Part shown: in pieces, positions 6,864 through 22,021 of the stretch
How the letters are laid out: every line of letters begins with the position of its first letter
Position numbering within the stretch: the stretch's first letter is position 1
NCBI RefSeq assembly: GCF_902788255.1
Contig: NZ_CADAJR010000031.1
Location: 1-43,530 of the forward strand
Reading direction: 5' to 3'
DNA length: 43,530 nucleotides
Origin: an uncultured Methanobrevibacter sp.
Lineage (GTDB): Archaea; Methanobacteriota; Methanobacteria; Methanobacteriales; Methanobacteriaceae
The notes under the pieces: model-generated
What the model saw: the letters and a program-made list of their open reading frames with translations, nothing else
What the model was told of the DNA's origin: nothing
Database searches by the model: none
Translations under genes and position numbers: made by a program

Positions 6864-8114
6864 ATGAGGAATATTGTAGTTGTTGAAGTTGCTTCAACAG
6901 GGGTAAATTTTATTCAGGATATAATCAACAGGAATTATAATCCTGTTGTATTGCGATTGAATGTAGATGAAGTTACTGAAGAGAACAAGGAATATAACCG
7001 AATGGTTGATGAGTATGCCAATTCCATCGATGCTGATTTTGAGACAATATATGAAAAGGATTCCTATGAGGAAACTCTTGAGATGGTTAGGGGATATGAC
7101 CCGTTGCTAGTGATTCCGGCTTCAGAAAAGGGAGTTATTTTAGCCACACGATTGGCGGATGACTTGAATTTGTTGGGTAATCCCTACAAAAACATTGACT
7201 ATTTGACTTTGAAGGACAAGATGCAGGAAAAAATTGCAGAAAGTGGCCTTAGACATATAAAGGGTCAGGTCATAACTTCAGTTGAACAGGCCATTGAATA
7301 CTATGACAGTGAAGGTCTGGAGGAAGTTGTTGTCAAACCGGTCTACAGTTCAGGTTCAGTGGGTATGAGGATTTGTTTAAATCGGCAGGAGTTGATTGAG
7401 CATTTAACTGAACAGTTTAAAAGAGTAAACCTCTATGGTGATGAACTGAAAGAATTTGTCGTCCAGGAGCGTATTAAGGGCGATGAATATATTGTGAATA
7501 CCGTTTCCTGTAATGGAGTGCATCGCGTAACCACCATTTGGAAATATCATAATGTTTCTTCTTCTGATGGTACCTATATCTATGATTATATGGAAACCAT
7601 TAATGATCTGGGTCTTGGAGAGGCAGATATTGTTGAATATGCATATAATGTGGCTGATGCATTGGGAATCCAATATGGTTCCGTTCATGAAGAGTTTATG
7701 GTTGACGATAATGGGCCGGTTTTGATTGAAGTCAACTGTCGTCCTATGGGCGGTAACATGCCAATAAAGTTTTTAGACTTGATTTCAGGTCAGCATGAAA
7801 CCGACAGTATCCTTGATTCATATTTAAATCCTGAAAATTTTGAATTTGAATGCAGAAGAGGATACAAACTCTACGAACATGGTGCAATTAAATTTTTCAT
7901 CGTTCCAAGAGAAATTGCTGCTAGATCATCTCCAATTGCAAAAATTTCAAATAATATGAAAAGCCATTTCAAAACCACTGAAATAAGTTTTGACACAATA
8001 AAAAGATTTGTCAAAACACAGGATTTAGAAACCATTGGGGGAACAGTATATCTGTGTCACACTGACGGGTATGCTGTTTTAAAGGAAAATATTCATAATT
8101 TAATTTTAATATAA
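6864..8114 (+). CDS. ATP-grasp family carboxylate-amine ligase, substrate unknown
   Basis: 416 residues from the ATG at 6864; a TTG three codons earlier is possible but less likely. It has the ATP-grasp layout. There is an N-terminal pre-ATP-grasp fold (NIVVVEVASTGVNFIQDI). The ATP-binding part contains LKDKMQEKI and EEVVVKPVYSSGSVGM, whose lysine and Gly/Ser loop contact ATP. Then come FVVQERIKGDEYIVNTVS and the metal-binding end VLIEVNCRPMGGNMP (E and N ligands). It resembles the peptide/L-amino-acid ligase group (BacD-like) more than PurK or carbamoyl-phosphate synthetase. Such enzymes join a carboxylate to an amine through an acyl-phosphate. It is monocistronic. The shared upstream palindrome could link it to the gamma-glutamyl operon at 22141, which is inference. 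Confidence 0.75.
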   Translation: MRNIVVVEVASTGVNFIQDIINRNYNPVVLRLNVDEVTEENKEYNRMVDEYANSIDADFETIYEKDSYEETLEMVRGYDPLLVIPASEKGVILATRLADDLNLLGNPYKNIDYLTLKDKMQEKIAESGLRHIKGQVITSVEQAIEYYDSEGLEEVVVKPVYSSGSVGMRICLNRQELIEHLTEQFKRVNLYGDELKEFVVQERIKGDEYIVNTVSCNGVHRVTTIWKYHNVSSSDGTYIYDYMETINDLGLGEADIVEYAYNVADALGIQYGSVHEEFMVDDNGPVLIEVNCRPMGGNMPIKFLDLISGQHETDSILDSYLNPENFEFECRRGYKLYEHGAIKFFIVPREIAARSSPIAKISNNMKSHFKTTEISFDTIKRFVKTQDLETIGGTVYLCHTDGYAVLKENIHNLILI

Positions 8115-8280
8115 TCCCGATGTTTTACTGATTCTTACATAGTCTATGGGAATATGAAGTTTGATTTAAAAATCGAAATAACTAATCTAAAGCCTATTTT
8201 TTACAAAATGGTTATATAATAAATTAAATAAAGTTAATAACAATATAAACATATTTTCTAATTATTTGTGGGTAATTAAA
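8115..8280 (+). promoter_or_regulatory. Presumed promoter region of the hsdRMS operon
   Basis: AT-rich spacer with a TATA-like GGTTATATAATAAATT near 8209-8224, about 57 bases before the hsdR start. GTGGGTAA just before the ATG is a weak ribosome site. Confidence 0.35.
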
Positions 8281-11004
8281 ATGTCAACTCAAAGTGAAGC
8301 GGTTTTAGAAGATAATTTAATTAAAAGATTGTCAAATAGTGGATATGAGAGAATCAAAATTAGAAATGAAGAGGAATTAATTGCTAATTTTAAGGTTCAA
8401 TTAGAACGATTAAACAAATGTGAATTGACAGATGAAGAATTTAAAAAAGTTTTATTGTTTTTGGACCAGGGTTCTATATTTGATAAGGCAAAAAAATTAA
8501 GGGATCATTTTTTTATTGACAGGAAAGATAATCCTTTTTATATCAAATTTTTAAACCAAAAGGATTGGTGTAAAAACATCTTCCAAATTTCAAATCAAAT
8601 AACTATGAAAGGCAAACATAAAAACAGGTATGATGTTACGTTATTAATTAATGGTTTACCTTTGGTTCAAATAGAACTTAAAAGACGTGGAATGCCATTA
8701 AAAGAGGCATTTGACCAAATTACTCGCTACACTTTACATTCCTACAAAGGTCTTTTCAATTACATTCAGATATTCGTTGTAAGTAATGGTGTTAACACCA
8801 AATATTTCGCTAATGGACTTAAAAAAGACTTGCAATATGAATTCACATTCTTTTGGAAGGATGAGGAAAATAACAATATCCATTCACTTGATGAGTTTGC
8901 AGATACCTTTTTGGAAAAATGTAATATTGCAAAGATGATTTCTAAATATATGGTTTTAAATGAGTCATCAAAAACACTAATGGTTTTAAGAGCTTATCAG
9001 AAATATGCTGTTGAAGCGGTCCTTCACCAGGCATTGGAAATTAAACAAAATGGTTATGTCTGGCATACAACAGGTTCTGGTAAAACTTTGACTTCTTATA
9101 AAGTTAGTCAATTGCTTGCAGAAGATGAATCAATATATAAAGTAATATTTGTTGTTGATAGGCGTGATCTGGACCTTCAAACAAATAAGGAATTCAATAG
9201 TTTCTGTGATGGATGTGTGAACACAACAAAACATACAGGAGTATTAATCAAAAACCTAACAACTGATGGAAAAGGTAAATTGATAACTACCACTATTCAA
9301 AAGTTATCTAAGGCTGTTAAAACTGCAGGGGATAAGGCTAAACTTCAAAGAATTAAGGATAAAAATATTATATTGATTTTTGATGAGTGTCACAGGAGTC
9401 AATTTGGTGAAATGCACAAATCAATCACAGATTTCTTTACTAATGCATTATCCTTTGGTTTTACTGGAACACCAATTTTTGCAGCAAATTCTGACGGTAC
9501 AAGAACTACAAAAGATATATTTGGTAAAAAACTCCATGAATATGTGATTAAGGATGCAATTGCTGATAATAATGTTTTGGGTTTTTCAGTTGATTACTTT
9601 GGTGGAGCGAAATTAAAGGAAATTCCGGATAAAGAAGTTTCAAAAATTGATACTAAGGAATTTTTGGAATCTGATAAACGTTTAAATCAGATTGTAGATC
9701 ATGTTATTGAAAGTTATGATAGAAAAACTCGCAATAGGGAATTTAATGCAATGTTTACAGTTTCGCGAGGTGGAGTAATTCATAAATATTATGATTTATT
9801 TAAGAAAAAAGACCATGATTTAAAAATTGTAACAATATTTACTTTTAAGGCTAATGAGGATTTAAGTGAAAGTGAGCATTCCCAAGATTTATTGGATAAG
9901 TATATGCAAGATTATAATGAAATGTTTGAAACCAATTTCACAAGTGATGATTTTAAGCTGTATCATGCAGATGTTTCTAAGAGAATGAAAAATCGTGAAA
10001 TTGATTTATTACTTGTAGTGGATATGTTTTTAACAGGTTTTGACAGTAAACTGCTTAACACATTATATGTGGATAAGAATCTGCAATATCATGGTTTGCT
10101 TCAGGCATTTTCAAGAACTAATCGTATATATAACAAGCGAAAATCACAGGGAAATATTATTTGCTTTACTAATTTAAAAGAAAATGTCGATAATGCTATT
10201 GCACTGTTTTCAGATCCTAATGCACTTGATGAAATTATCATGCCTCCGTATGAAACATTTGTTAAATGGTTCAACCAGGATTTGGAAAGATTGTTTAAAT
10301 TAGTTAAAACAGCTAGTGATGCATTAGAACTTCAGAGTGAAAAAGATAAAGAAAGTTTTGTTTTAATTTTCAGAGATTTGATACGTAATAAAAATAAATT
10401 GGATATCTTCACTGAATTTGATTGGAAAGATGTTAAAATTGAAGAGCAGGAATTCAATGATTTTAGAAGTGTCTATTTAGATATTTATGCTGAAATTAAA
10501 ACTCCTGGTGGTGAGACTGAATCTATTTTAAAAGATATAGATTTTGAGCTGGAATTGCTTAGAAATGATCAAATCAATGTTGATTATATTTTAAACCTTC
10601 TAGCCGATTTAGATAAAAATAGTAGTAGTTTTGAACATGATAAACAGCGTATTATTAGCATAATGAAAGAACATGAGAATTTACGCAGTAAAATTGATTT
10701 GATTGAGAAATTCATCAATGAACGACTTGGCAATATAGATACGAAAATTACTAATGTTAGTGAAGAGTTTGACAAGTTCATGCGCCATGAGAGGAAAGAG
10801 GCTATGTGTGAAATTGTTGATAAGGAACATTTAAATGAAGATAAAGCTCGTAAAGTCTTTGAAATATTTGAATTTTCTGGAAAAATTGATGATGATTTAC
10901 TTAAACAATCATTTATTGATAAATTAAAATTCAAAGAACGTAAAAAGAAAGTTAATACTATAAAAATTGAAATCATTGATTTATTTAAAAAATTTGATTA
11001 TTAA
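8281..11004 (+). CDS. hsdR: Type I restriction enzyme R subunit (HsdR)
   Basis: 907 residues from the ATG at 8281; an in-frame TTG at 8266 is less likely. The N-terminal HSDR_N nuclease domain shows the PD-(D/E)XK signature: YDVTLLINGLPLVQIELKRR, with the catalytic Asp and E-L-K near 115-135. The SF2 motor follows: Walker A TTGSGKT around 265, DECHRSQFGEMHK around 368, GFTGTP, and the late motif DMFLTGFDSK with QAFSRTNR. The subunit translocates DNA and cuts unmethylated DNA as part of an R2M2S complex. The C-terminal coiled region (about 720-900) would contact MS. It begins the hsdR-hsdM-hsdS operon; hsdM starts 30 bases after the stop. DNA here is more AT-rich than the flanking housekeeping genes, consistent with transfer. 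Confidence 0.97.
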   Translation: MSTQSEAVLEDNLIKRLSNSGYERIKIRNEEELIANFKVQLERLNKCELTDEEFKKVLLFLDQGSIFDKAKKLRDHFFIDRKDNPFYIKFLNQKDWCKNIFQISNQITMKGKHKNRYDVTLLINGLPLVQIELKRRGMPLKEAFDQITRYTLHSYKGLFNYIQIFVVSNGVNTKYFANGLKKDLQYEFTFFWKDEENNNIHSLDEFADTFLEKCNIAKMISKYMVLNESSKTLMVLRAYQKYAVEAVLHQALEIKQNGYVWHTTGSGKTLTSYKVSQLLAEDESIYKVIFVVDRRDLDLQTNKEFNSFCDGCVNTTKHTGVLIKNLTTDGKGKLITTTIQKLSKAVKTAGDKAKLQRIKDKNIILIFDECHRSQFGEMHKSITDFFTNALSFGFTGTPIFAANSDGTRTTKDIFGKKLHEYVIKDAIADNNVLGFSVDYFGGAKLKEIPDKEVSKIDTKEFLESDKRLNQIVDHVIESYDRKTRNREFNAMFTVSRGGVIHKYYDLFKKKDHDLKIVTIFTFKANEDLSESEHSQDLLDKYMQDYNEMFETNFTSDDFKLYHADVSKRMKNREIDLLLVVDMFLTGFDSKLLNTLYVDKNLQYHGLLQAFSRTNRIYNKRKSQGNIICFTNLKENVDNAIALFSDPNALDEIIMPPYETFVKWFNQDLERLFKLVKTASDALELQSEKDKESFVLIFRDLIRNKNKLDIFTEFDWKDVKIEEQEFNDFRSVYLDIYAEIKTPGGETESILKDIDFELELLRNDQINVDYILNLLADLDKNSSSFEHDKQRIISIMKEHENLRSKIDLIEKFINERLGNIDTKITNVSEEFDKFMRHERKEAMCEIVDKEHLNEDKARKVFEIFEFSGKIDDDLLKQSFIDKLKFKERKKKVNTIKIEIIDLFKKFDY

Positions 11005-11034
11005 TTGTTGACTATATGGTTTGGAGGTAAAGAC

Positions 11035-12579
11035 ATGTCAAATTATCAAAACAGTTTAGAAAGCAAACTCTGGGCAATAGCAGATGAGTTAAGAGGAAAC
11101 ATGGATGCAAATGAATTTAAAAATTATATTCTTGGATTTATTTTCTACAGGTACTTATCTGAAAAACTGGAAATGCACATGAATGAAGAATTAAAAGAAG
11201 ATGAATTAACATTTGCAGAAGCTTGGAAAAAAGATGATTATAAAGCAGATTTGGAAGAAGAGGGAATTTCATCATTAGGATATTTCATTGAACCTCAATA
11301 TTTATTTAGTAATATCATAGAAAATGCTAAAATTGATAAATTCATACTGGAAGATTTGATGAAATCTCTAAATTATATCAGTAACTCTTCAATGGGTGCT
11401 GACAGTCAAGATGACTTCAGCAATCTATTTGAAGATGTTGACTTGAATTCTTCAAAACTTGGAAGAAGTGATGATGATAAAAACAAACTGATTTCAAAAA
11501 TCCTTTTAAACTTAAATGACATTGACTTTAAACTTGATGATGATGAATCAGATATTTTAGGAGATGCTTATGAATACTTAATAAGTCAGTTTGCATCTAG
11601 TGCCGGTAAAAAAGCTGGAGAATTCTATACTCCTCAGGAAGTATCAAAAATCCTTGCTAAAATTGTCACATTGGGAAAAAATAAGCTTAAAAACGTTTAT
11701 GATCCAACATGTGGATCAGGTTCGTTACTTCTTCGAGTTTCAAAAGAAGCTCAAATTGGTGATTTCTATGGTCAGGAGTTAAATCAGACTACTTATAACC
11801 TTGCAAGAATGAATATGATTCTTCATGGGGTAAAATATGCTGATTTTGATATAAAACAGGGTGATTCATTAGAATATCCTCAACATATTGACACTAAATT
11901 TGAGGCTATTGTAGCCAATCCTCCATTTTCTGCAAAATGGTCTTCAGATAAATCATTTTTGGATGATGAAAGATTTTCCGCTTATGGTAAACTAGCACCA
12001 AAATCAAAGGCAGATTATGCATTTGTACAACACATGATTTATCACTTGGATGAAAATGGAACAATGGGAATCGTATTGCCTCATGGAGTATTATTCAGGG
12101 GAGCAGCAGAAGGAGTAATACGTAAATACTTGATTGATGAGAAAAACTACCTTGATGCTGTTATTGGACTTCCAGCAAATATATTCTATGGAACCAGTAT
12201 ACCTACTGTAATATTGGTATTTAAAAAATGTCGTGAAGACGATGCGGATATACTTTTCATTGATGCGAGCAAAGACTTTGAAAAAGTTAAAAATCAGAAC
12301 AAACTAAGATCTCAAGATATTGAAAAAATTGTTGATACCTATGCAAAACGTGAAGAAATAGAGAAATATTCACATAAAGCCAGTTTGGAAGAGATTGAGG
12401 AAAATGATTATAATTTGAATATTCCAAGATATGTGGATACTTTTGAAGAAGAGGAAGCAATTGATTTGAATGAAGTTGTTTCAGAACTTAAAAAAATCAA
12501 TGAAGAAATGAAAGAAGTTGATGCTGAAATTAAAAAGTATTGTGATGAATTAGGCATTCAAGCTCCAATATTTGACTGA
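11035..12579 (+). CDS. hsdM: Type I DNA methyltransferase M subunit (HsdM)
   Basis: 514 residues starting at the ATG at 11035, which has the ribosome site GGAGGTAAAGAC. The N-terminal HsdM_N helical domain (ESKLWAIADELRGNMDANEFKNYILGFIFYR) leads into an N6-adenine methyltransferase. The SAM-binding motif I DPTCGSGSLLL is near 223-233, and the catalytic motif IV NPPF near 294. The preceding KKAGEFYTPQEV block is characteristic of HsdM. Two M and one S subunit form the methylase that adds N6-methyladenine at a bipartite site. The interval to hsdS is 9 bases, so the genes are in one operon. The C-terminus is a charged coiled coil, the usual contact with HsdS. Confidence 0.97.
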   Translation: MSNYQNSLESKLWAIADELRGNMDANEFKNYILGFIFYRYLSEKLEMHMNEELKEDELTFAEAWKKDDYKADLEEEGISSLGYFIEPQYLFSNIIENAKIDKFILEDLMKSLNYISNSSMGADSQDDFSNLFEDVDLNSSKLGRSDDDKNKLISKILLNLNDIDFKLDDDESDILGDAYEYLISQFASSAGKKAGEFYTPQEVSKILAKIVTLGKNKLKNVYDPTCGSGSLLLRVSKEAQIGDFYGQELNQTTYNLARMNMILHGVKYADFDIKQGDSLEYPQHIDTKFEAIVANPPFSAKWSSDKSFLDDERFSAYGKLAPKSKADYAFVQHMIYHLDENGTMGIVLPHGVLFRGAAEGVIRKYLIDEKNYLDAVIGLPANIFYGTSIPTVILVFKKCREDDADILFIDASKDFEKVKNQNKLRSQDIEKIVDTYAKREEIEKYSHKASLEEIEENDYNLNIPRYVDTFEEEEAIDLNEVVSELKKINEEMKEVDAEIKKYCDELGIQAPIFD

Positions 12580-12588
12580 GTTGGTATT

Positions 12589-13821
12589 ATGGTTGAAGAA
12601 AAAATGGTACCTAAACTACGATTTGGTGGATTTGATGATAATTTTATAAGTGCTAGATTAAGTGATGTTTGTGAGGTTAAAGGCAGAATTGGATTTAGAG
12701 GATATGCAAAATCAGATTTAGTTGGAGAAAATGAAGGTGCTTTAACATTAGGTGGAAAACACATTGATTCTAATGATAAATTAAATTTAAATGATCCTGA
12801 TTATTTATCTTGGGAAAAATATGAGGAATCACCAGAAATTAAAGTCCATACTGGAGATATTATTCTAGCTCAACGAGGCACATTAGGACAATCTGCTTTA
12901 ATCGATAAAGAAATTGGTAAAGCTACAATAAATCCTAGTATGGTTTTATTAAAGGATTTTAAGATAAATAATGTTTTTTTACATTATTTACTAACTACTT
13001 CAAAACTTAAAAAAGAAGTGATTAGAAAATCTTCTAGCACTGCTGTTCCAATGATTAGTCAAGCTGAAATAAAAAAACTGAAAATTTATTACCCTAATCA
13101 AACTGAACAAGAAAAAATTGCTAATTTCTTCAGAATAATTGATAAAAAAATTAGATTGTTGGAAAATAAACTTAAATTCTATCAAAATTTCAAAAAGTAT
13201 TTGATGCAACAAATTTTCACACAGAAATTAAGATTTGATTTTGATGAGGAATGGGAAATAGTCCGATTAAAAGATATTGTTGAAAGAGTAACAAGAAAAA
13301 ACACTAAGTTAGAATCAAATTTAGCATTAACAATCTCCGCGGAACATGGTTTAATTGATCAAGAAAAATTTTTTAATAAAATAGTTGCTAGTAAAAGTTT
13401 AAAAAATTATTATTTAATCAAAAATGGTGAATTTGCATATAATAAAAGTTATTCAAATGGATATCCATTTGGTGCAATTAAACGATTAAATGATTATGAT
13501 ATGGGAGCATTATCTACATTATATATCTGTTTTAAACCAACTAACGTTGATAGTGATTTCTTACAAGAATATTTTGAAACAACAATGTGGTATAAAGAAA
13601 TATATTCAATTGCTGTAGAAGGTGCTAGAAATCATGGGTTATTAAATATTAATGTTCAAGATTTCTTTAATACGAAACACAAGATTCCTCAAAGTATTGA
13701 AGAACAACAAAAGATAGCAAATTTATTTAAAACAATTAATTTAAAAATTTTAAATAATAATACTGAATTAAATGAGGTTATAAAATTTAAAAAAGGTTTG
13801 CTCCAACAAATGTTTGTTTGA
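12589..13821 (+). CDS. hsdS: Type I specificity subunit (HsdS), expressed copy
   Basis: 410 residues, full length for HsdS, with two target-recognition domains (TRDs). TRD A spans about residues 8-180. A central helical conserved region follows, with KKYLMQQIFTQKLRF near 201-216. TRD B comes next and the terminal helix ends FKKGLLQQMFV. Each TRD reads one half of the bipartite target. The N-terminal tag MVEEKMVPK precedes the repeat LRFGGFDD, and this tag exists only at this copy. The DNA repeat coding for LRF-GFD (12615-12638) and the central repeat (13201-13236) recur in the silent cassettes downstream, in frame and partly inverted. The present TRD pair can therefore probably be exchanged by DNA inversion. 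Confidence 0.95.
   Translation: MVEEKMVPKLRFGGFDDNFISARLSDVCEVKGRIGFRGYAKSDLVGENEGALTLGGKHIDSNDKLNLNDPDYLSWEKYEESPEIKVHTGDIILAQRGTLGQSALIDKEIGKATINPSMVLLKDFKINNVFLHYLLTTSKLKKEVIRKSSSTAVPMISQAEIKKLKIYYPNQTEQEKIANFFRIIDKKIRLLENKLKFYQNFKKYLMQQIFTQKLRFDFDEEWEIVRLKDIVERVTRKNTKLESNLALTISAEHGLIDQEKFFNKIVASKSLKNYYLIKNGEFAYNKSYSNGYPFGAIKRLNDYDMGALSTLYICFKPTNVDSDFLQEYFETTMWYKEIYSIAVEGARNHGLLNINVQDFFNTKHKIPQSIEEQQKIANLFKTINLKILNNNTELNEVIKFKKGLLQQMFV
12615..12638 (+). repeat. Putative recombination site 1 (5' hsdS repeat), expressed copy
   Basis: 24-base repeat with core CTACGATTT followed by GG-GGATTTGATGA. It encodes LRFGGFDD just after the hsdS start. Near-identical copies lie at 13933-13956 (same strand) and 15741-15764 (opposite strand), all in the same reading frame. 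Confidence 0.75.
13201..13236 (+). repeat. Putative recombination site 2 (central hsdS repeat), expressed copy
   Basis: The central repeat, beginning TTGATGCAACAAATTTTC, encodes LMQQIFTQKLRF between the two TRDs. It recurs with few changes at 14513-14545 (same strand) and at 15082-15145 (opposite strand, duplicated). Confidence 0.75.
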
Positions 13822-13836
13822 ATGCTTAAATTTTTT

Positions 13837-13868
13837 AATTTAAATTATTTTTAATAATAATTTAAATT
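13837..13868 (+). terminator. AT-only hairpin after hsdS
   Basis: A 13-base arm AATTTAAATTATT (13837-13849) and its perfect complement (13856-13868) enclose a 6-base loop, followed by a T-rich run. It sits 16 bases after the hsdS stop and is a likely terminator for hsdRMS. Confidence 0.45.
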
Positions 13869-13932
13869 TATTATTTTTGTTTAATTAATTATTGTTTTTA
13901 TATTATTTTGTTTATTTGAGTCATATTTACCA

Positions 13933-13956
13933 ACTACGATTTAGTGGATTTGATGA
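13933..13956 (+). repeat. Putative recombination site 1, cassette C copy
   Basis: Same 24-base unit as at 12615 with one base changed (GGTGG to AGTGG within the core). Direct orientation relative to the expressed gene, so exchange with 12615 would delete rather than invert. Confidence 0.7.
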
Positions 13957-14512
13957 AGAATGGAAATCGCATCAATTAGGTGAAATTAGTGATGTTACAA
14001 AATTAGCTGGATTTGAATTCACAGAATATGTTAATTATTCTGATGAGGGCAATATTATTGCTTTAAGAGGATTAAACATTAAAAATAATAAATTAGACTT
14101 ATCTGATGTCAAATATATTGATAATAGTGATTTTACTAAATTAAACAGAAGTAAGTTATATATTGGTGATTTATTATTTACATATGTTGGAACCATTGGT
14201 GAAGTTGCATTAATCTCAGAAAATGATAAATATTATTTAGCACCTAATGTATGTAGAATAAGATGTGATGAAGAGGTTAATCCTGATTTACTTAAATTTT
14301 ATTTTAATTCTATATTAATTAAAAAAGAAATACTAAAATATGTTACTAAAAGCTCCCAACCAGCTTTATCTATGGAAAATATTAGAAAATTCAAAATTAA
14401 ACTTCCATCTATTTCAGAACAAGAAAAAATTGCTAATTTTTTAATTACTATTGATAAAAAGATAGAATTATTGGAAAAGAAACACGATTCATATGTAAAC
14501 TTCAAAAAATAT

Positions 14513-14545
14513 TTGATGCAACAGATTTTCGCACAGAAATTAAGA
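14513..14545 (+). repeat. Putative recombination site 2, cassette C copy
   Basis: 33 bases beginning TTGATGCAACAGATTTTC, identical to the copies on the opposite strand at 15082-15114. It ends exactly where cassette C stops and the reversed cassette E begins. Confidence 0.7.
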
Positions 14546-14548
14546 ATT

Positions 14549-15114
14549 ATCTGCTTTGGCATATATTCAAACATTTGTTGGAGCAATCCTTTTTTAAATT
14601 CATTTGTTTCATCAAGTTGTTTTTGAGTACAGTTTATTTTTATATCAACATTAGAAAACATGTCAGATATTTTATTTTGTTCTTCTAAATTTGGTATAGG
14701 CAACTTTACATTTTTTATAATTGAAAAATGTCTTTTATACCCTTCAGGTTTGATATTAAAGTGTTCTAATGCATAAAATAAATATTTTGGAATAGTATTT
14801 ATTTTTGGTAATAAAAGTTTAACACCATCCGCTCCAACAATAAATGGTTTATCTCTAAATTTAACAAATGTTGTATGGTCTCCATATATAATAATAGGCA
14901 ACTCATGACATAATTTATTTTTATCATCAAAATAACCAGCAATTTCATCTTGGCCTTGATCAATAACCTCAAAATCACCATAATCATTTATTTCAGCACT
15001 TTTTATTTGATATCTTCTTGGAGAAACAGATTTAAAAATATCATTAACACTTAGATACTTCCATTCATCACTGAAGTTAAATCTTAATTTCTGTGCGAAA
15101 ATCTGTTGCATCAA
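14549..15114 (-). pseudogene. Silent hsdS cassette E (second-half TRD, inverted)
   Basis: Read on the minus strand, it begins in the central repeat (MQQIFAQKLRFNFSDEWKYLSVNDIF). It carries a complete second-half TRD (GDFEVIDQGQDEIAGYFDD ... IIIYGDHTTFVKF ... ADGVKLLLPK) and ends with the terminal hsdS helix EFKKGLLQQMFEYMPKQI. The frame then runs without a stop into the reversed end of cassette C until 14299, adding about 85 unrelated residues, so the original stop was lost at the junction. Its own start is missing. With cassette D it forms an hsdS-like unit in opposite orientation to the expressed gene. Confidence 0.82.
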
Positions 15115-15145
15115 TTAATTTCTGTGCGAAAATCTGTTGCATCAA
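15084..15145 (-). repeat. Exact 31-bp tandem duplication of recombination site 2
   Basis: Two adjacent identical 31-base units (15084-15114 and 15115-15145), each starting TTGATGCAACAGATTTTC on the minus strand. As 31 is not a multiple of three, the duplication breaks the frame between cassettes D and E: D ends in KLIDATDFRTEIKI and a stop. It lies exactly on the central hsdS repeat. Confidence 0.85.
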
Positions 15146-15740
15146 GTACTTCTTGAAATTCTGATAATCCTCATATTTATGTTCCAATAATTCAATTTTT
15201 TTATCAATAAATGAAAATAAATTTACAATATTCTGTTGTTCACTCTTAGAAGGAATATTAACACTTAATTTAGATAAATTATTCTTACTTATTCCCAACA
15301 CCGAAATTCCGTTTGCAATTCGTTTAATATTTGTTTTTAAATCATCTGTTAAAAATAGATAACCTTTAAAACCATTAATTGTTATATTTTTTTCATCACG
15401 AGCTAAAATTGTATGCAAACCGGCTAACACTTTTTCATCATTAATATCTTTAACTTCAATAGCTTTTCCAATATCAGCATAATCTTCTGAAGCATCAGCA
15501 ATAATTAAATCCCCATCTTGTAAATATTGACTATCTTTGTATTTAGACAAATCTATGTCATTGTTAATAAAAGGAATATCCTTATTATCATGAACAGATA
15601 ATATTGTTGGGAATTTAGTGTGAATATCGCCATAATGTATGTTTTTAACATTTCCCTGTTCATAATTCAATTTTTCTCTTGAAAATGAATTTGTAGAATA
15701 AAATGTTAAAATATCACCCAATTTAACCGATTTCCATTCA

Positions 15741-15764
15741 TCATCAAATCCGCTAAATCGTAGT
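15741..15764 (-). repeat. Putative recombination site 1, inverted copy (cassette D)
   Basis: Minus-strand copy of the 24-base unit with core CTACGATTTAGCGGATTT. It is inverted relative to 12615, and the roughly 3.1 kb between them would flip in an inversion. Confidence 0.75.
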
Positions 15765-15825
15765 ATTTGATGCTGTATATAATTTCAAAATTTATTAAAA
15801 AGATATTTGTATATGGTGATTTTTC

Positions 15826-16821
15826 ATGAAAAATATTTTAATTAATTTAATTAAAACTAAAATGAAATATTATTTAAATGAATCTCAAATATCTGAACTT
15901 AATCATGCTCTTGAATCAGTATTAAATGATTTTGAGGTTATTAAAAAGGATAAGAATTTAACAATTGATGAATCAAAAGAAAATCATGATTTGGTGGTTA
16001 ATTTTCTTTCAGCTAAACAAATTGAGGGATGTTCAGAAAGAACTATTGCTTATTATAAAACAACTATTTTCAAGATGTTGGGTTCAATTAATTTAAAAAT
16101 TGAAAACATCACTACTGATGATTTGAGAAAATATTTGTCTGACTATAAAGACCAAACTACTGCATCTAAATCAACTATTGACAATATACGTCGTGTTCTT
16201 TCAAGTTTTTTCAGTTGGCTTGAAGATGAGGATTATATTCTTAAAAATCCTGTTCGAAGAATTCATAAGATTAAAACCAGAAAGGTTGTTAAAGAAGTTT
16301 TATCGGATGAAAATTTTGAGATTTTAAGGGACAATTGCAGCAACATTAGGGATTTGGCAATGATTGAGCTTTTGGCTTCAACTGGTATACGTGTGGGTGA
16401 GCTAGTTAATTTGAATATTGATGATGTTTTATTTAATGAACGGGAATGTGTAGTATTGGGTAAAGGAGACTCTGAACGTATTGTTTACTTTGATGCTAAA
16501 ACAAAAATTCATCTGCAAAAATATCTGGCGTCAAGAAAAGATCATAATCCTGCATTATTCGTGTCATTTAAAAAACCTTACAATAGACTTGGGATTAATG
16601 GAGTCGAGAGGAGAATACGTGAACTTGGCAGGGAGGCCAATATTAAAAAAGTGCATCCTCATAAATTCAGAAGAACAATGGCGACTAATGCAATCGATAA
16701 GGGAATGCCGATTGAACAGGTTCAAAAGTTATTGGGTCATGTACAGATTGACACTACTATGCAGTATGCAATGGTTAATCAGAGTAATGTGAAAATAGCT
16801 CATAGGAAGTTCATAGGGTAA
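15826..16821 (+). CDS. Tyrosine recombinase, probable hsdS invertase
   Basis: 331-residue XerC/D-type tyrosine recombinase. The N-terminal core-binding helical domain is at about 55-150 (VNFLSAKQIEGCSERTIAYY). The catalytic domain carries the expected residues: Arg189 (TGIRVGEL), Lys213 in the beta turn (VVLGKGDSER), His279 and Arg282 (HPHKFRRT), His305 (LLGHVQIDTT) and nucleophile Tyr314 (MQYAMV). Ribosome site GGTGAT lies 5 bases before the ATG. It begins only 62 bases beyond the outer hsdS repeat. In bacterial phase-variable type I systems a recombinase in this position inverts hsdS modules, and that role is inferred here. A phage integrase or a housekeeping Xer protein are alternatives; no attachment site or phage gene is visible. 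Confidence 0.92.
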   Translation: MKNILINLIKTKMKYYLNESQISELNHALESVLNDFEVIKKDKNLTIDESKENHDLVVNFLSAKQIEGCSERTIAYYKTTIFKMLGSINLKIENITTDDLRKYLSDYKDQTTASKSTIDNIRRVLSSFFSWLEDEDYILKNPVRRIHKIKTRKVVKEVLSDENFEILRDNCSNIRDLAMIELLASTGIRVGELVNLNIDDVLFNERECVVLGKGDSERIVYFDAKTKIHLQKYLASRKDHNPALFVSFKKPYNRLGINGVERRIRELGREANIKKVHPHKFRRTMATNAIDKGMPIEQVQKLLGHVQIDTTMQYAMVNQSNVKIAHRKFIG

Positions 16822-16861: not shown

Positions 16862-16924
16862 AAAATCAAAAGAGATAGTAGAAAATATTAACTCCACTCT
16901 TGAAAAAACAACGAATCATACAAG
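16862..16924 (+). pseudogene. Decayed fragment of the small gene at 17297
   Basis: About 63 bases closely match the start of the gene at 17297 (the part encoding IKKEIVEKVNSTLEKNNESY). Two small deletions break the frame: AAAAGAG versus AAAAAAGAG, and a lost base before CAACGAATCATACA. It lies directly after the recombinase and looks like a partial duplicate left by rearrangement. Confidence 0.7.
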
Positions 16925-16950
16925 AGTTATCCCTTAAGCTTTTCAATGTA

Positions 16951-17296: not shown

Positions 17297-17590
17297 ATGA
17301 TAAGTGATGAGGAAAAAGATAAAATCAAAAAAGAGATAGTGGAAAAAGTTAACTCCACTTTGGAGAAAAACAACGAATCATACAGGATGGATCAGGTAAA
17401 CATTCTCAAAACCAGTGATACTGTTAAGTTCATGGGAAATTACCGTGTCTATGACAGAAAAAACTATCAATCTGTCTCAAATGAAATCAATACTTTCCTA
17501 AAGCAGTACGGAAATGTTGACATCAAGTCCAAAAAAATCAGGGACAGCGGAATGAAGTTTACAACAGTAAGCTTTAACTTTGAGCTATAA
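17297..17590 (+). CDS. Small conserved-looking hypothetical protein
   Basis: 97 residues from the ATG at 17297, preceded by GGGGGAGATATC, a strong ribosome site. Basic and acidic residues alternate in the N-terminal helix (SDEEKDKIKKEIVEKVNSTL). The C-terminal part (NYRVYDRKNYQSVSNEINTFLKQYGNVDIKSKKIRDSGMKFTTVSFNFEL) looks like a small alpha/beta domain. No signal peptide, membrane segment or cysteine is present. I cannot name a family. A broken copy of its first third lies 430 bases upstream, showing past duplication at this site. Confidence 0.65.
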   Translation: MISDEEKDKIKKEIVEKVNSTLEKNNESYRMDQVNILKTSDTVKFMGNYRVYDRKNYQSVSNEINTFLKQYGNVDIKSKKIRDSGMKFTTVSFNFEL

Positions 17591-19783: not shown

Positions 19784-22021
19784 ATGAAAGTTACAAAAAA
19801 ACTACTTCTTGTTGCTTTGCTACTTTCTTTAATATTGTCCATAGGAGCGGTAACGGCCCAGGACAATATAACTTTCGAGAAAAGCAACTTACAAGACATT
19901 TCAACAGAAACAATTAATCAGATTGATGAACAGACTTCTTCTGATGATGTTCTCAATGAAAATAATGAAGATAACAAATTAAAAGAGGACGTCGTCAGAG
20001 CATATGAGTTTTCAGATATTCAAAGTTGGATAAACTCCGCTAGCGAAGGAGAAACAATTTATCTCAACGGCGAGTATTATTCAAATTCAGGAAACCCAAT
20101 TGATGTAACAAAAAATAACATAACCCTAATTGGGGGCTCACAGTCAAACCCTAACTCAATAGCCACACTGGATGCGAATGGAATATCAAGCATAATGAAT
20201 ATTGCCGCAAGCAATGTGGTTATAAAGGGCATCAAATTCATAAATGGATATGCGCCAATAATTCAGAAGTATAATATGCATGAGGGGAGTTATTATAATG
20301 AGAGTACAGATGTTGGTGCTATTGACATAACCGGTTCAAACTGTAAAATAATGTCCTGCAGTTTTATAAATAATGCTGCAACCCAAGATGCAGGAGCCAT
20401 TAAAATAGGACAATTTACCGCAAATAACATAATAGATGAATGTGTTTTTGAAGATAATAATGCAAGAGCGGGTGGTGCTATTCTTATACGGGGTGATAAT
20501 GTTTCCGTATTGAACTCTAATTTCACCAATAATTTTGCATCAAGTGGCGGAACAATTGAATCAAGTGGTAGGAATGCAATTATTGACAATTGCAATTTTA
20601 TCAACAATTATGCATATTTTGATGGGGGAGCAATAGGAGTATCTGGTTTCAATTCCACTATAATTAACTCCAACTTCATCAACAGTTCATGTAATCGTGA
20701 TGGGGGAGCAATTTCCATTAATAGAGATAACATTACCGTAAAATCCAATAAATTCATTGATAGTCATTCCACAAGAAACGGTGGTGCAATTTATATTTTT
20801 GATAATAACAATTGTGTTGTCGAAAACAATAGATTTCTTAACAGCACTGCTGGTGACGGTGCCGATATTTGGATAAAAGGAATGAACAATCAGATTTTAA
20901 GCAATTCTTTTTATGGTCCTATGGGAGTCTATGAAGACAATCCCGGCAGTGCCATTATCGAAAACAATGCTGAAAATGTTGAATTCTATTCAATAAATGT
21001 TAACTCATCGATTGTCGATTTTGTCGGCAGGACAATTCAGATTCCAATCTATATTACTGATATCTTAGACACTCCGGTCTCCGGAACAGTGACCTTATAT
21101 GGTTGGGGCGACCAGACACTGGTGGGCGGAAAGGCAATGTTTATCATCAATCTGCCGTCAACTCCAACAGTTTTAAAATCCTATGTGAAATATGGGGATG
21201 AAATAAAAAACATCACAATTGAAAGCATTGCCCATGATTCAATTGAAAGCATCTCTCAAAATGCTAATGATGATATTATCGTCAAGCTTTCATCTGGTGC
21301 TACAGGCACTATTATAGTAAACATCAACGGAGTTAACTATATTGCTGATGCGGTAAACGGAACCGCCACAGTCAGACCTAAAGGTTTGGTTAACGGAGAA
21401 TACACTGCTATTGTGTTATATTCCGGTGATGATGAGTATTCTAATGAATGGAGCATTATCCCAATCAACATTACACAGTCTCCAGTCTATAAGCTAACTC
21501 AAAACAAGGACATTAATGTCATGTACAGCGGCAAGGCATCATATAAAGTACTGGTTATGAAGGATGGTAAGCCGGTTGCAGGCGAAAATGTTGTAATCAG
21601 CTTCAACGGCAAGAACAACAATGTCAAAACCGATGCAAATGGATATGCAACCCTGAACCTTGACACAGGCATCAAGCCTGGATCATACAATGTCAAAACC
21701 ACTTATAATGGTGTAAGCGCAACCAACAAGGTCAACATTAAACAGATTATAAAAGCATCAGACAAAAAGGTCAAAAAGTCTGCCAAGACCACTAAAGTCA
21801 AGATTTCCCTGAGCAAGGTTGACGGCAAGTATCTGAAAGGCAAGACCCTGAAAGTCAAGTTCAACGGCAAGACTTATAAGGTCAAAACCAACAGCAAGGG
21901 CGTTGGAATATGGAAAGTTAAAAAATCCATGGTTAAAAAGCTTAAAGTCGGCAAAAAGGTTAAATATACAATAACTTATGGCAAGGACGCCTTAACCAAG
22001 AAATTAATCATAAAAAAATAG
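19784..22021 (+). CDS. Secreted adhesin-like protein with right-handed beta-helix and Ig-like repeats
   Basis: 745 residues. It has a classic signal peptide (MKVTKKLLLVALLLSLILSIGAVTA, cut near residue 26). An Asn/acidic linker precedes a parallel beta-helix at about 85-420 with repeated rungs such as CVFEDNNARAGGAI, NFTNNFASSGGTIES and NFINNYAYFDGGAIG. About 430-570 is Ig-like. About 575-665 is a second Ig-like/carboxypeptidase-regulatory-like domain (VLVMKDGKPVAGENVVISFNG). The end (about 670-745) is very Lys-rich (KTLKVKFNGKTYKVKTNSKG) and could bind the acidic cell wall. Large families of such proteins are known from Methanobrevibacter and are thought to act at the cell surface in attachment. 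No membrane anchor is seen at the C-terminus. It lies between the two substrate-binding protein genes. Confidence 0.9.
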   Translation: MKVTKKLLLVALLLSLILSIGAVTAQDNITFEKSNLQDISTETINQIDEQTSSDDVLNENNEDNKLKEDVVRAYEFSDIQSWINSASEGETIYLNGEYYSNSGNPIDVTKNNITLIGGSQSNPNSIATLDANGISSIMNIAASNVVIKGIKFINGYAPIIQKYNMHEGSYYNESTDVGAIDITGSNCKIMSCSFINNAATQDAGAIKIGQFTANNIIDECVFEDNNARAGGAILIRGDNVSVLNSNFTNNFASSGGTIESSGRNAIIDNCNFINNYAYFDGGAIGVSGFNSTIINSNFINSSCNRDGGAISINRDNITVKSNKFIDSHSTRNGGAIYIFDNNNCVVENNRFLNSTAGDGADIWIKGMNNQILSNSFYGPMGVYEDNPGSAIIENNAENVEFYSINVNSSIVDFVGRTIQIPIYITDILDTPVSGTVTLYGWGDQTLVGGKAMFIINLPSTPTVLKSYVKYGDEIKNITIESIAHDSIESISQNANDDIIVKLSSGATGTIIVNINGVNYIADAVNGTATVRPKGLVNGEYTAIVLYSGDDEYSNEWSIIPINITQSPVYKLTQNKDINVMYSGKASYKVLVMKDGKPVAGENVVISFNGKNNNVKTDANGYATLNLDTGIKPGSYNVKTTYNGVSATNKVNIKQIIKASDKKVKKSAKTTKVKISLSKVDGKYLKGKTLKVKFNGKTYKVKTNSKGVGIWKVKKSMVKKLKVGKKVKYTITYGKDALTKKLIIKK

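What the first reader, a model, noticed from the sequence alone, without database searches (positions are those of the whole stretch)
12589..16821. Invertible type I specificity locus (hsdS shufflon) with its own tyrosine recombinase in an archaeon
Seen: one complete hsdS; a second hsdS-like unit in opposite orientation lacking a start codon; a third TRD in direct orientation lacking a start; near-identical 24-base and 31-36-base repeats at the matching protein positions of every copy, all in the same frame; and a tyrosine recombinase with all catalytic residues 62 bases past the outer repeat. Known: bacterial phase-variable type I systems use this plan to switch methylation patterns. Inferred: inversion between 12615 and 15764 exchanges the first TRD; inversion between 13201 and 15114 exchanges the second. 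With first-half TRDs A, C, D and second-half B, E, up to six specificities are possible.
Basis: partly seen in the sequence, partly recalled or inferred. Interest (0 to 1): 0.88.

Follow-up and report, generated by a model that had tools for sequence, protein, structure and literature searches.

The report
Archaeal shuffling restriction-specificity gene cassette
A gut methane-producing archaeon carries a DNA-restriction system whose target-recognition gene has spare, partly reversed pieces bounded by short repeats next to a dedicated DNA-flipping enzyme, so it can probably reshuffle which DNA sequence it marks, much as some bacteria do; the kind is known, and this is a detailed archaeal case with indirect but not read-level evidence of flipping.

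Summary
Two corrections. (1) D and E are out of frame, because the mid repeat at 15084-15145 is an exact 31-bp tandem duplication. (2) There is a third repeat class, at the hsdS 3' end (13784-13825 / 14559-14600), needed to give A-E a clean stop. Best explanation: a recombinase-driven specificity shufflon of the known Spn556II/cod kind, in Methanobrevibacter. Support: the recombinase family sits beside hsdS in 56/58 bacterial and 16/22 archaeal loci. The mid site is conserved at codon level beyond protein need and occurs only at hsdS mid sites in this genome. The same TRDs recur in related species with other partners and opposite orientation to the recombinase. Contigs of three genomes end exactly at site edges. 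Two near-identical Lactococcus plasmids with a homologous recombinase differ by an exact inverted swap of hsdS halves. Read-level inversion in an archaeon was not shown. Archaeal presence was already asserted by Li et al. 2016, so this is a new member of a known kind.

The parts
8266..11004 (+). hsdR, restriction subunit (912 aa)
   Evidence: TIGR00348 474 bits over the 284.55 cut-off; HSDR_N, EcoR124_C
11005..12579 (+). hsdM, modification subunit (524 aa)
   Evidence: TIGR00497 466 bits over the 242.75 cut-off; N6_Mtase
12589..13821 (+). expressed hsdS, 5' TRD A (12640-13212) and 3' TRD B (13246-13809)
   Evidence: ORF with ATG 9 bp after hsdM stop; Methylase_S
12614..12638 (+). 5' site, copy A
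   Evidence: 25-bp repeat, 96% to 13932-13956
13201..13236 (+). mid site, copy A/B (LMQQIFTQKLRF)
13784..13825 (+). 3' site, copy B (KKGLLQQMF)
   Evidence: inverted repeat I7, 42 nt, 88%
13932..13956 (+). 5' site, copy C
13955..14524 (+). silent lone 5' TRD C, no start codon
   Evidence: Methylase_S E 3e-18
14513..14545 (+). mid site, copy C
   Evidence: 33-bp exact inverted match to 15082-15114
14559..14600 (-). 3' site, copy E
   Evidence: inverted repeat I7
14575..15069 (-). silent 3' TRD E, inverted, no own stop after the 3' site
   Evidence: Methylase_S E 1e-14
15082..15114 (-). mid site, E-proximal copy
15115..15145 (-). mid site, D-proximal copy; with 15084-15114 an exact 31-bp tandem duplication that frameshifts D against E
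15134..15742 (-). silent 5' TRD D, inverted, no start codon; orthologue lies in the other orientation to the recombinase in G009
15740..15764 (-). 5' site, copy D (outer inverted repeat)
   Evidence: inverted repeats I4 and I6
15826..16821 (+). tyrosine recombinase (331 aa), catalytic R189 K213 H279 R282 H305 Y314
   Evidence: NF040815 271 bits over the 220 cut-off; catalytic residues invariant in the alignment

Best explanation
[quoted passage not shown] Only the hsdS next to hsdM has a start. The recombinase at the end of the array recombines inverted copies of three short sites: 5' edge of the first TRD, junction of the two halves, and 3' end. This swaps silent 5' TRDs (C, D) and the 3' TRD (E) with A and B, changing the bipartite target of methylation and restriction. 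Shown: anatomy, site conservation, family linkage, TRD relocation and flipping between species. Inferred: that this recombinase acts on these sites, that inversion occurs within a culture, and that methylation changes. The 31-bp duplication is either real (a damaged reservoir unit) or an assembly join made at a variable junction.
For: Inverted matches of 33 bp (mid) and 42 bp/88% (3'), against at most 16 bp exact in shuffles. In the best 80 genome hits of the recombinase, 56/58 bacterial and 16/22 archaeal loci have hsdS TRDs within 5 kb; TRDs lie on both strands in 42 and 10. The mid 24-mer occurs 6 times in the 2.2-Mb genome, all at hsdS mid sites, reversed control 0. Same-amino-acid codons are identical 84% of the time in the mid site against 65% just upstream, with TTC, TTA, AGA and TTT nearly fixed over 23 copies. 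TRD clusters c2, c3 (=D), c4, c8, c9, c10 occur in opposite orientations to the recombinase in different species, mostly with different partners; D homology in G009 ends at the mid and 5' repeats. Contigs end exactly at site edges in the expressed hsdS after hsdM in G000:C14 (mid), G002:C29 (mid) and G004:C12 (5'). C14 and C25 overlap by exactly 99 bp, ending where C25 (T) and window E (C) diverge, and other contig ends overlap by 98-100 bp, which fits a graph fork. Near-identical Lactococcus plasmids with a homologous recombinase (62.5%) differ by an inverted swap of 665-680 bp hsdS halves at 100% identity.
Against: No reads, PCR or second isolate of this organism. TRD flips are seen only between species about 80% alike in DNA, so they could reflect slow recombination or gene transfer. 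Type I loci without a nearby recombinase in this genus also carry the mid site. The D-E unit is frameshifted as assembled. Six of 22 archaeal recombinase loci have no hsdS nearby, though five of those are cut by contig ends; some close homologues sit by adhesin-like genes.
Confidence: 0.8

Rival explanations
1. Static or slowly evolving hsdS remnants: the silent TRDs are reservoirs changed only by occasional homologous recombination or gene transfer, and the recombinase is a passenger or acts on something else.
For: Repeats are short coding motifs under protein constraint; TRD flips are only between species; mid sites also occur at type I loci without a recombinase; D-E is frameshifted.
Against: Codon-level conservation of the mid site beyond protein need, and recombinase-hsdS linkage in 56/58 bacterial loci; contig ends exactly at sites in three genomes; an observed swap at a homologous recombinase locus in Lactococcus.
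Confidence: 0.15
2. The inverted D-E unit or its duplication is a misassembly.
For: The 31-bp (window) and 29-bp (C23) exact tandem duplications are the only ones with 18-70 bp units in 494 kb of this genome, and both lie at hsdS mid sites; each starts exactly where the copies become identical, as expected of a contig starting at a graph fork.
Against: The same arrangement (full hsdS forward, lone 5' half, inverted unit, recombinase) is assembled independently in L009 and L012 without a duplication. A join artefact there would itself point to conflicting reads at the site.
Confidence: 0.05
3. The recombinase is the chromosome dimer resolvase XerA or a mobile-element integrase that happens to lie here.
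For: NCBIfam names it recomb_XerA_Arch; apart from its own paralogue on C23 no other protein of this genome passes that cut-off.
Against: Two copies in one genome, each inside a type I hsdS locus; tight hsdS linkage in bacteria; other genomes of the genus carry separate full-length homologues at about 30% identity, e.g. G010, G020, G029.
Confidence: 0.05

Closest known systems
Spn556II / cod locus (SpnD39III) of Streptococcus pneumoniae with PsrA (PMC4948785, PMC7096588)
   Same: hsdR-hsdM-hsdS with silent hsdS copies including one single-TRD gene, a locus-encoded tyrosine recombinase, and three classes of inverted repeat (15-bp IR1, 298-bp IR2, 85-bp IR3) that exchange 5' and 3' TRDs
   Different: Archaeal; recombinase at the outer end of the array; sites are short coding repeats of 25-42 bp; inversion proven in pneumococcus, inferred here; direct sequence kinship to PsrA not tested
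Inverting type I systems of Firmicutes with a homologous recombinase (Lactococcus plasmid pJM2A, Streptococcus suis, Listeria costaricensis, Ruminococcus)
   Same: Recombinase 59-63% identical with identical catalytic residues; hsdS halves on both strands; inverted repeats at hsdS mid and 3' positions
   Different: Usually recombinase between two hsdS genes with hsdR downstream; their repeat core is ATAAATGATAATTTAG-like, unlike the window's TTTCRCACAGAAATTAAG
Second locus of the same genome, G000:C23:38000-47000, and relatives L021-L028
   Same: Same recombinase family (70-71% identical), R-M-hsdS with inverted hsdS units
   Different: hsdS units face each other across the recombinase; a 50-bp exact inverted repeat at hsdS 3' ends; HsdM only 36% identical to the window's

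Membership tests
Recombinase-driven phase-variable type I R-M (Spn556II/cod type) | Complete hsdR, hsdM and one expressible hsdS | tested here: met
Recombinase-driven phase-variable type I R-M (Spn556II/cod type) | Further silent hsdS or TRDs without start, at least one inverted | tested here: met
   C (+), E and D (-)
Recombinase-driven phase-variable type I R-M (Spn556II/cod type) | Inverted repeats shared by expressed and silent copies at TRD boundaries, beyond chance | tested here: met
Recombinase-driven phase-variable type I R-M (Spn556II/cod type) | Locus-encoded site-specific recombinase, catalytic residues intact | tested here: met
Recombinase-driven phase-variable type I R-M (Spn556II/cod type) | In-frame chimeric HsdS after inversion | tested here: met
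   A-E (475 or 387 aa) and D-B (421 aa) in frame in silico; D-first state truncated by the 31-bp duplication
Recombinase-driven phase-variable type I R-M (Spn556II/cod type) | Rearranged configurations actually occur | tested here: inconclusive
   TRDs flipped between species and contig forks at sites; no reads available
Recombinase-driven phase-variable type I R-M (Spn556II/cod type) | Methylation motif changes with configuration | not testable with these tools
   needs methylome data
PsrA recombinase subfamily | Sequence and phylogenetic kinship to pneumococcal PsrA | not tested
   PsrA sequence not in the collections used; a Streptococcus suis homologue (L088) is 62% identical
XerA archaeal recombinase (NF040815) | Score over the curated cut-off | tested here: met
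   271 against 220 bits; this is a sequence name, dif-site function was not tested

The most novel reading that the evidence does not exclude
One recombinase shuffles specificity modules not only within its own array but also with an unlinked type I locus (C14/C25) that has no recombinase of its own but carries the same 5' site and an exact copy of the mid site. The assembly-graph fork at that locus would then be reads joining its 5' TRD to window TRD E, giving a multi-locus archaeal shufflon that works in trans.
Probability: 0.2. Interest if true: 0.65.

Novelty: new member of a known kind. Interest (0 to 1): 0.5.

Why it matters
Programmed shuffling of restriction specificity is well studied in bacteria, where it changes defence and gene expression. 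In archaea it has been asserted in one sentence (PMC4948785), and the only read-based survey seen here found no inversions in six archaeal genomes (PMC5903667). A mapped archaeal locus, with sites, recombinase and rearranged relatives in gut methanogens of a culturable genus, makes archaeal phase variation directly testable. It also shows a module shared across domains in the gut, and bears on phage resistance and DNA uptake in Methanobrevibacter.

Tried and rejected
Searching for rearranged alleles of the same species: only one genome per species is held, and IMG/VR has no match to the mid or 5' site. Two versions of Methanosphaera plasmid pNP174 are identical here and carry the recombinase without hsdS. 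A shared core between the window 5' site (ATTTAGYGG) and bacterial repeats (ATTTAGCGG) was noticed but not pressed: most archaeal copies read GTGG and the match may be chance. Exact archaeal priority could not be settled: a search for Methanosphaera stadtmanae genome literature gave no hit.

Full report
OBSERVATION. The window is one whole contig (C31) of a 2.197-Mb, 69-contig genome whose nearest relatives are Methanobrevibacter. The locus reads hsdR (8266-11004), hsdM (11005-12579), hsdS A-B (12589-13821), lone forward 5' TRD C, inverted E and D, tyrosine recombinase (15826-16821). hsdS and each of the silent units C, D and E match Methylase_S (A and B by the session profile). The longest exact inverted match, 33 bp, compares with at most 16 bp in 60 dinucleotide shuffles.

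CORRECTIONS. The mid site between D and E is a 31-bp exact tandem duplication (15084-15145), and since 31 is not a multiple of 3, D and E are out of frame. Simulated inversions: A-mid x E-mid gives in-frame A-E of 475 aa with an 88-aa tail read from the antisense of C; adding a 3' x 3' inversion gives a clean A-E of 387 aa. 5' x 5' gives D alone (237 aa). 5' then mid gives D-B (421 aa). C reaches the expressed position only after two 5' inversions. Six full specificities is therefore an upper limit reached through several steps.

THE RECOMBINASE. It carries R189, K213, H279, R282, H305 and Y314, invariant in relatives, and scores over the NCBIfam XerA_Arch cut-off. Its best 80 relatives in species genomes are Methanobrevibacter (up to 87%), then about 60-63% in Firmicutes, Bacteroidota and others. 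hsdS TRDs lie within 5 kb in 56/58 bacterial and 16/22 archaeal loci. In the tree the archaeal proteins form one group with one Bacteroidota-labelled MAG contig inside (99% SH-aLRT), nearest to Bacteroidota and Streptococcus/Treponema-type bacterial sequences; a module shared across domains with few exchanges is the simplest reading, and direction was not tested.

SITES. The 24-mer mid core occurs six times in this genome, all at hsdS mid sites, with 0 for the reversed control. In 23 copies from related loci, codons for unchanged residues are identical in 84% of comparisons within the mid site against 65% in the 35 codons before it; the first Phe is TTC in 22/23 while the last is TTT in 23/23. 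This exceeds protein constraint and suggests a DNA site, though the pairwise comparisons are not independent. The core TTTC-RCACA-GAAA has dyad symmetry, as recombinase cores usually do (established knowledge); bacterial relatives have a different dyad core, ATAAATGATAATTTAG, and the genome's second locus (C23) has a 50-bp inverted repeat ending GATAAATTGTGATTT.

REARRANGEMENT IN RELATIVES. TRDs were clustered at 55% identity or more. D (c3) is inverted next to the recombinase in the window and L012/G034, but forward with another partner in G009/L162; its homology ends at the mid site and at the 5' site. c9 is the expressed 5' TRD in L009 but an inverted unit next to the recombinase in L010; c4, c10, c2 and c8 also change orientation relative to the recombinase. 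Some TRDs move between 5' and 3' positions (c0, c16). These are species-level differences, so they show recombination at these edges, not its rate.

ASSEMBLY SIGNS OF VARIATION. C14 ends and C25 begins with the same 99 bp inside the hsdS of a second type I locus (HsdM 74% identical, no adjacent recombinase). The overlap ends at the exact base where C25 (T) and window E (C) diverge after the mid repeat. Other contig ends of this assembly overlap by 98-100 bp, so this looks like a graph vertex with more than one continuation. In G002 and G004 the contigs holding hsdM also end exactly at the edge of the mid or 5' site of the expressed hsdS. The only exact tandem duplications of 18-70 bp units in 494 kb of this genome are the 31-bp one here and a 29-bp one in the C23 hsdS locus, also at the mid site and also frameshifting; none lies at hsdS sites in 1.39 Mb of related loci. 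Both begin exactly where the repeat copies become identical, as expected if two contigs broken at a fork were joined without trimming. Real duplication is not excluded.

POSITIVE CONTROL. Two near-identical Lactococcus plasmids whose recombinase is 62.5% identical to the window's differ by an inverted swap of 665-680 bp hsdS halves at 100% identity.

COMPARISON. The plan matches the pneumococcal Spn556II/cod locus, where PsrA acts on IR1, IR2 and IR3 (PMC4948785, PMC7096588). Li et al. [quoted passage not shown] The REBASE survey PMC7394358 does not mention archaea and PMC5903667 found no inversions in six archaeal genomes. The archaeal tyrosine recombinase review PMC8371274 does not use the word restriction. 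I therefore file it as a new member of a known kind, with active inversion in this archaeon still to be shown.

Noticed in passing
L098 (G000:C23:34000-50000), recombinase 8839-9822, hsdS units 7421-12600: A second recombinase-linked hsdS locus in the same genome, with inverted hsdS units on both sides, a 50-bp exact inverted repeat at hsdS 3' ends, and a 29-bp exact tandem duplication at a mid site (10561-10618).
   Followed up: partly
L015, L018, L019, L175, L177: Recombinases in or close to the window recombinase's sister clade lie beside large adhesin-like genes instead of hsdS; in L015 two such genes flank it and share a 90-bp exact direct repeat. They may have been recruited to vary surface proteins.
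   Followed up: partly
window 19784-22021: A 745-aa adhesin-like protein gene lies 3 kb downstream of the recombinase.
   Followed up: no
L100 end and L099 start (G000:C14/C25): Second type I locus without its own recombinase carries the same 5' and mid sites; its two halves are split by a 99-bp contig overlap.
   Followed up: yes
L226 15001-15999: Methanosphaera sp. ISO3-F5 plasmid pNP174 carries a 63% identical recombinase with no hsdS nearby.
   Followed up: partly
window 16868-16942 and 17329-17404: Two diverged copies (77-85%) of the start of a small gene, one apparently a fragment, just downstream of the recombinase.
   Followed up: no
L162, L012, L172, L164: Some TRD families occur at both 5' and 3' positions of hsdS in different genomes (c0, c2, c16), suggesting domain movement between the 5' and mid sites.
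   Followed up: partly
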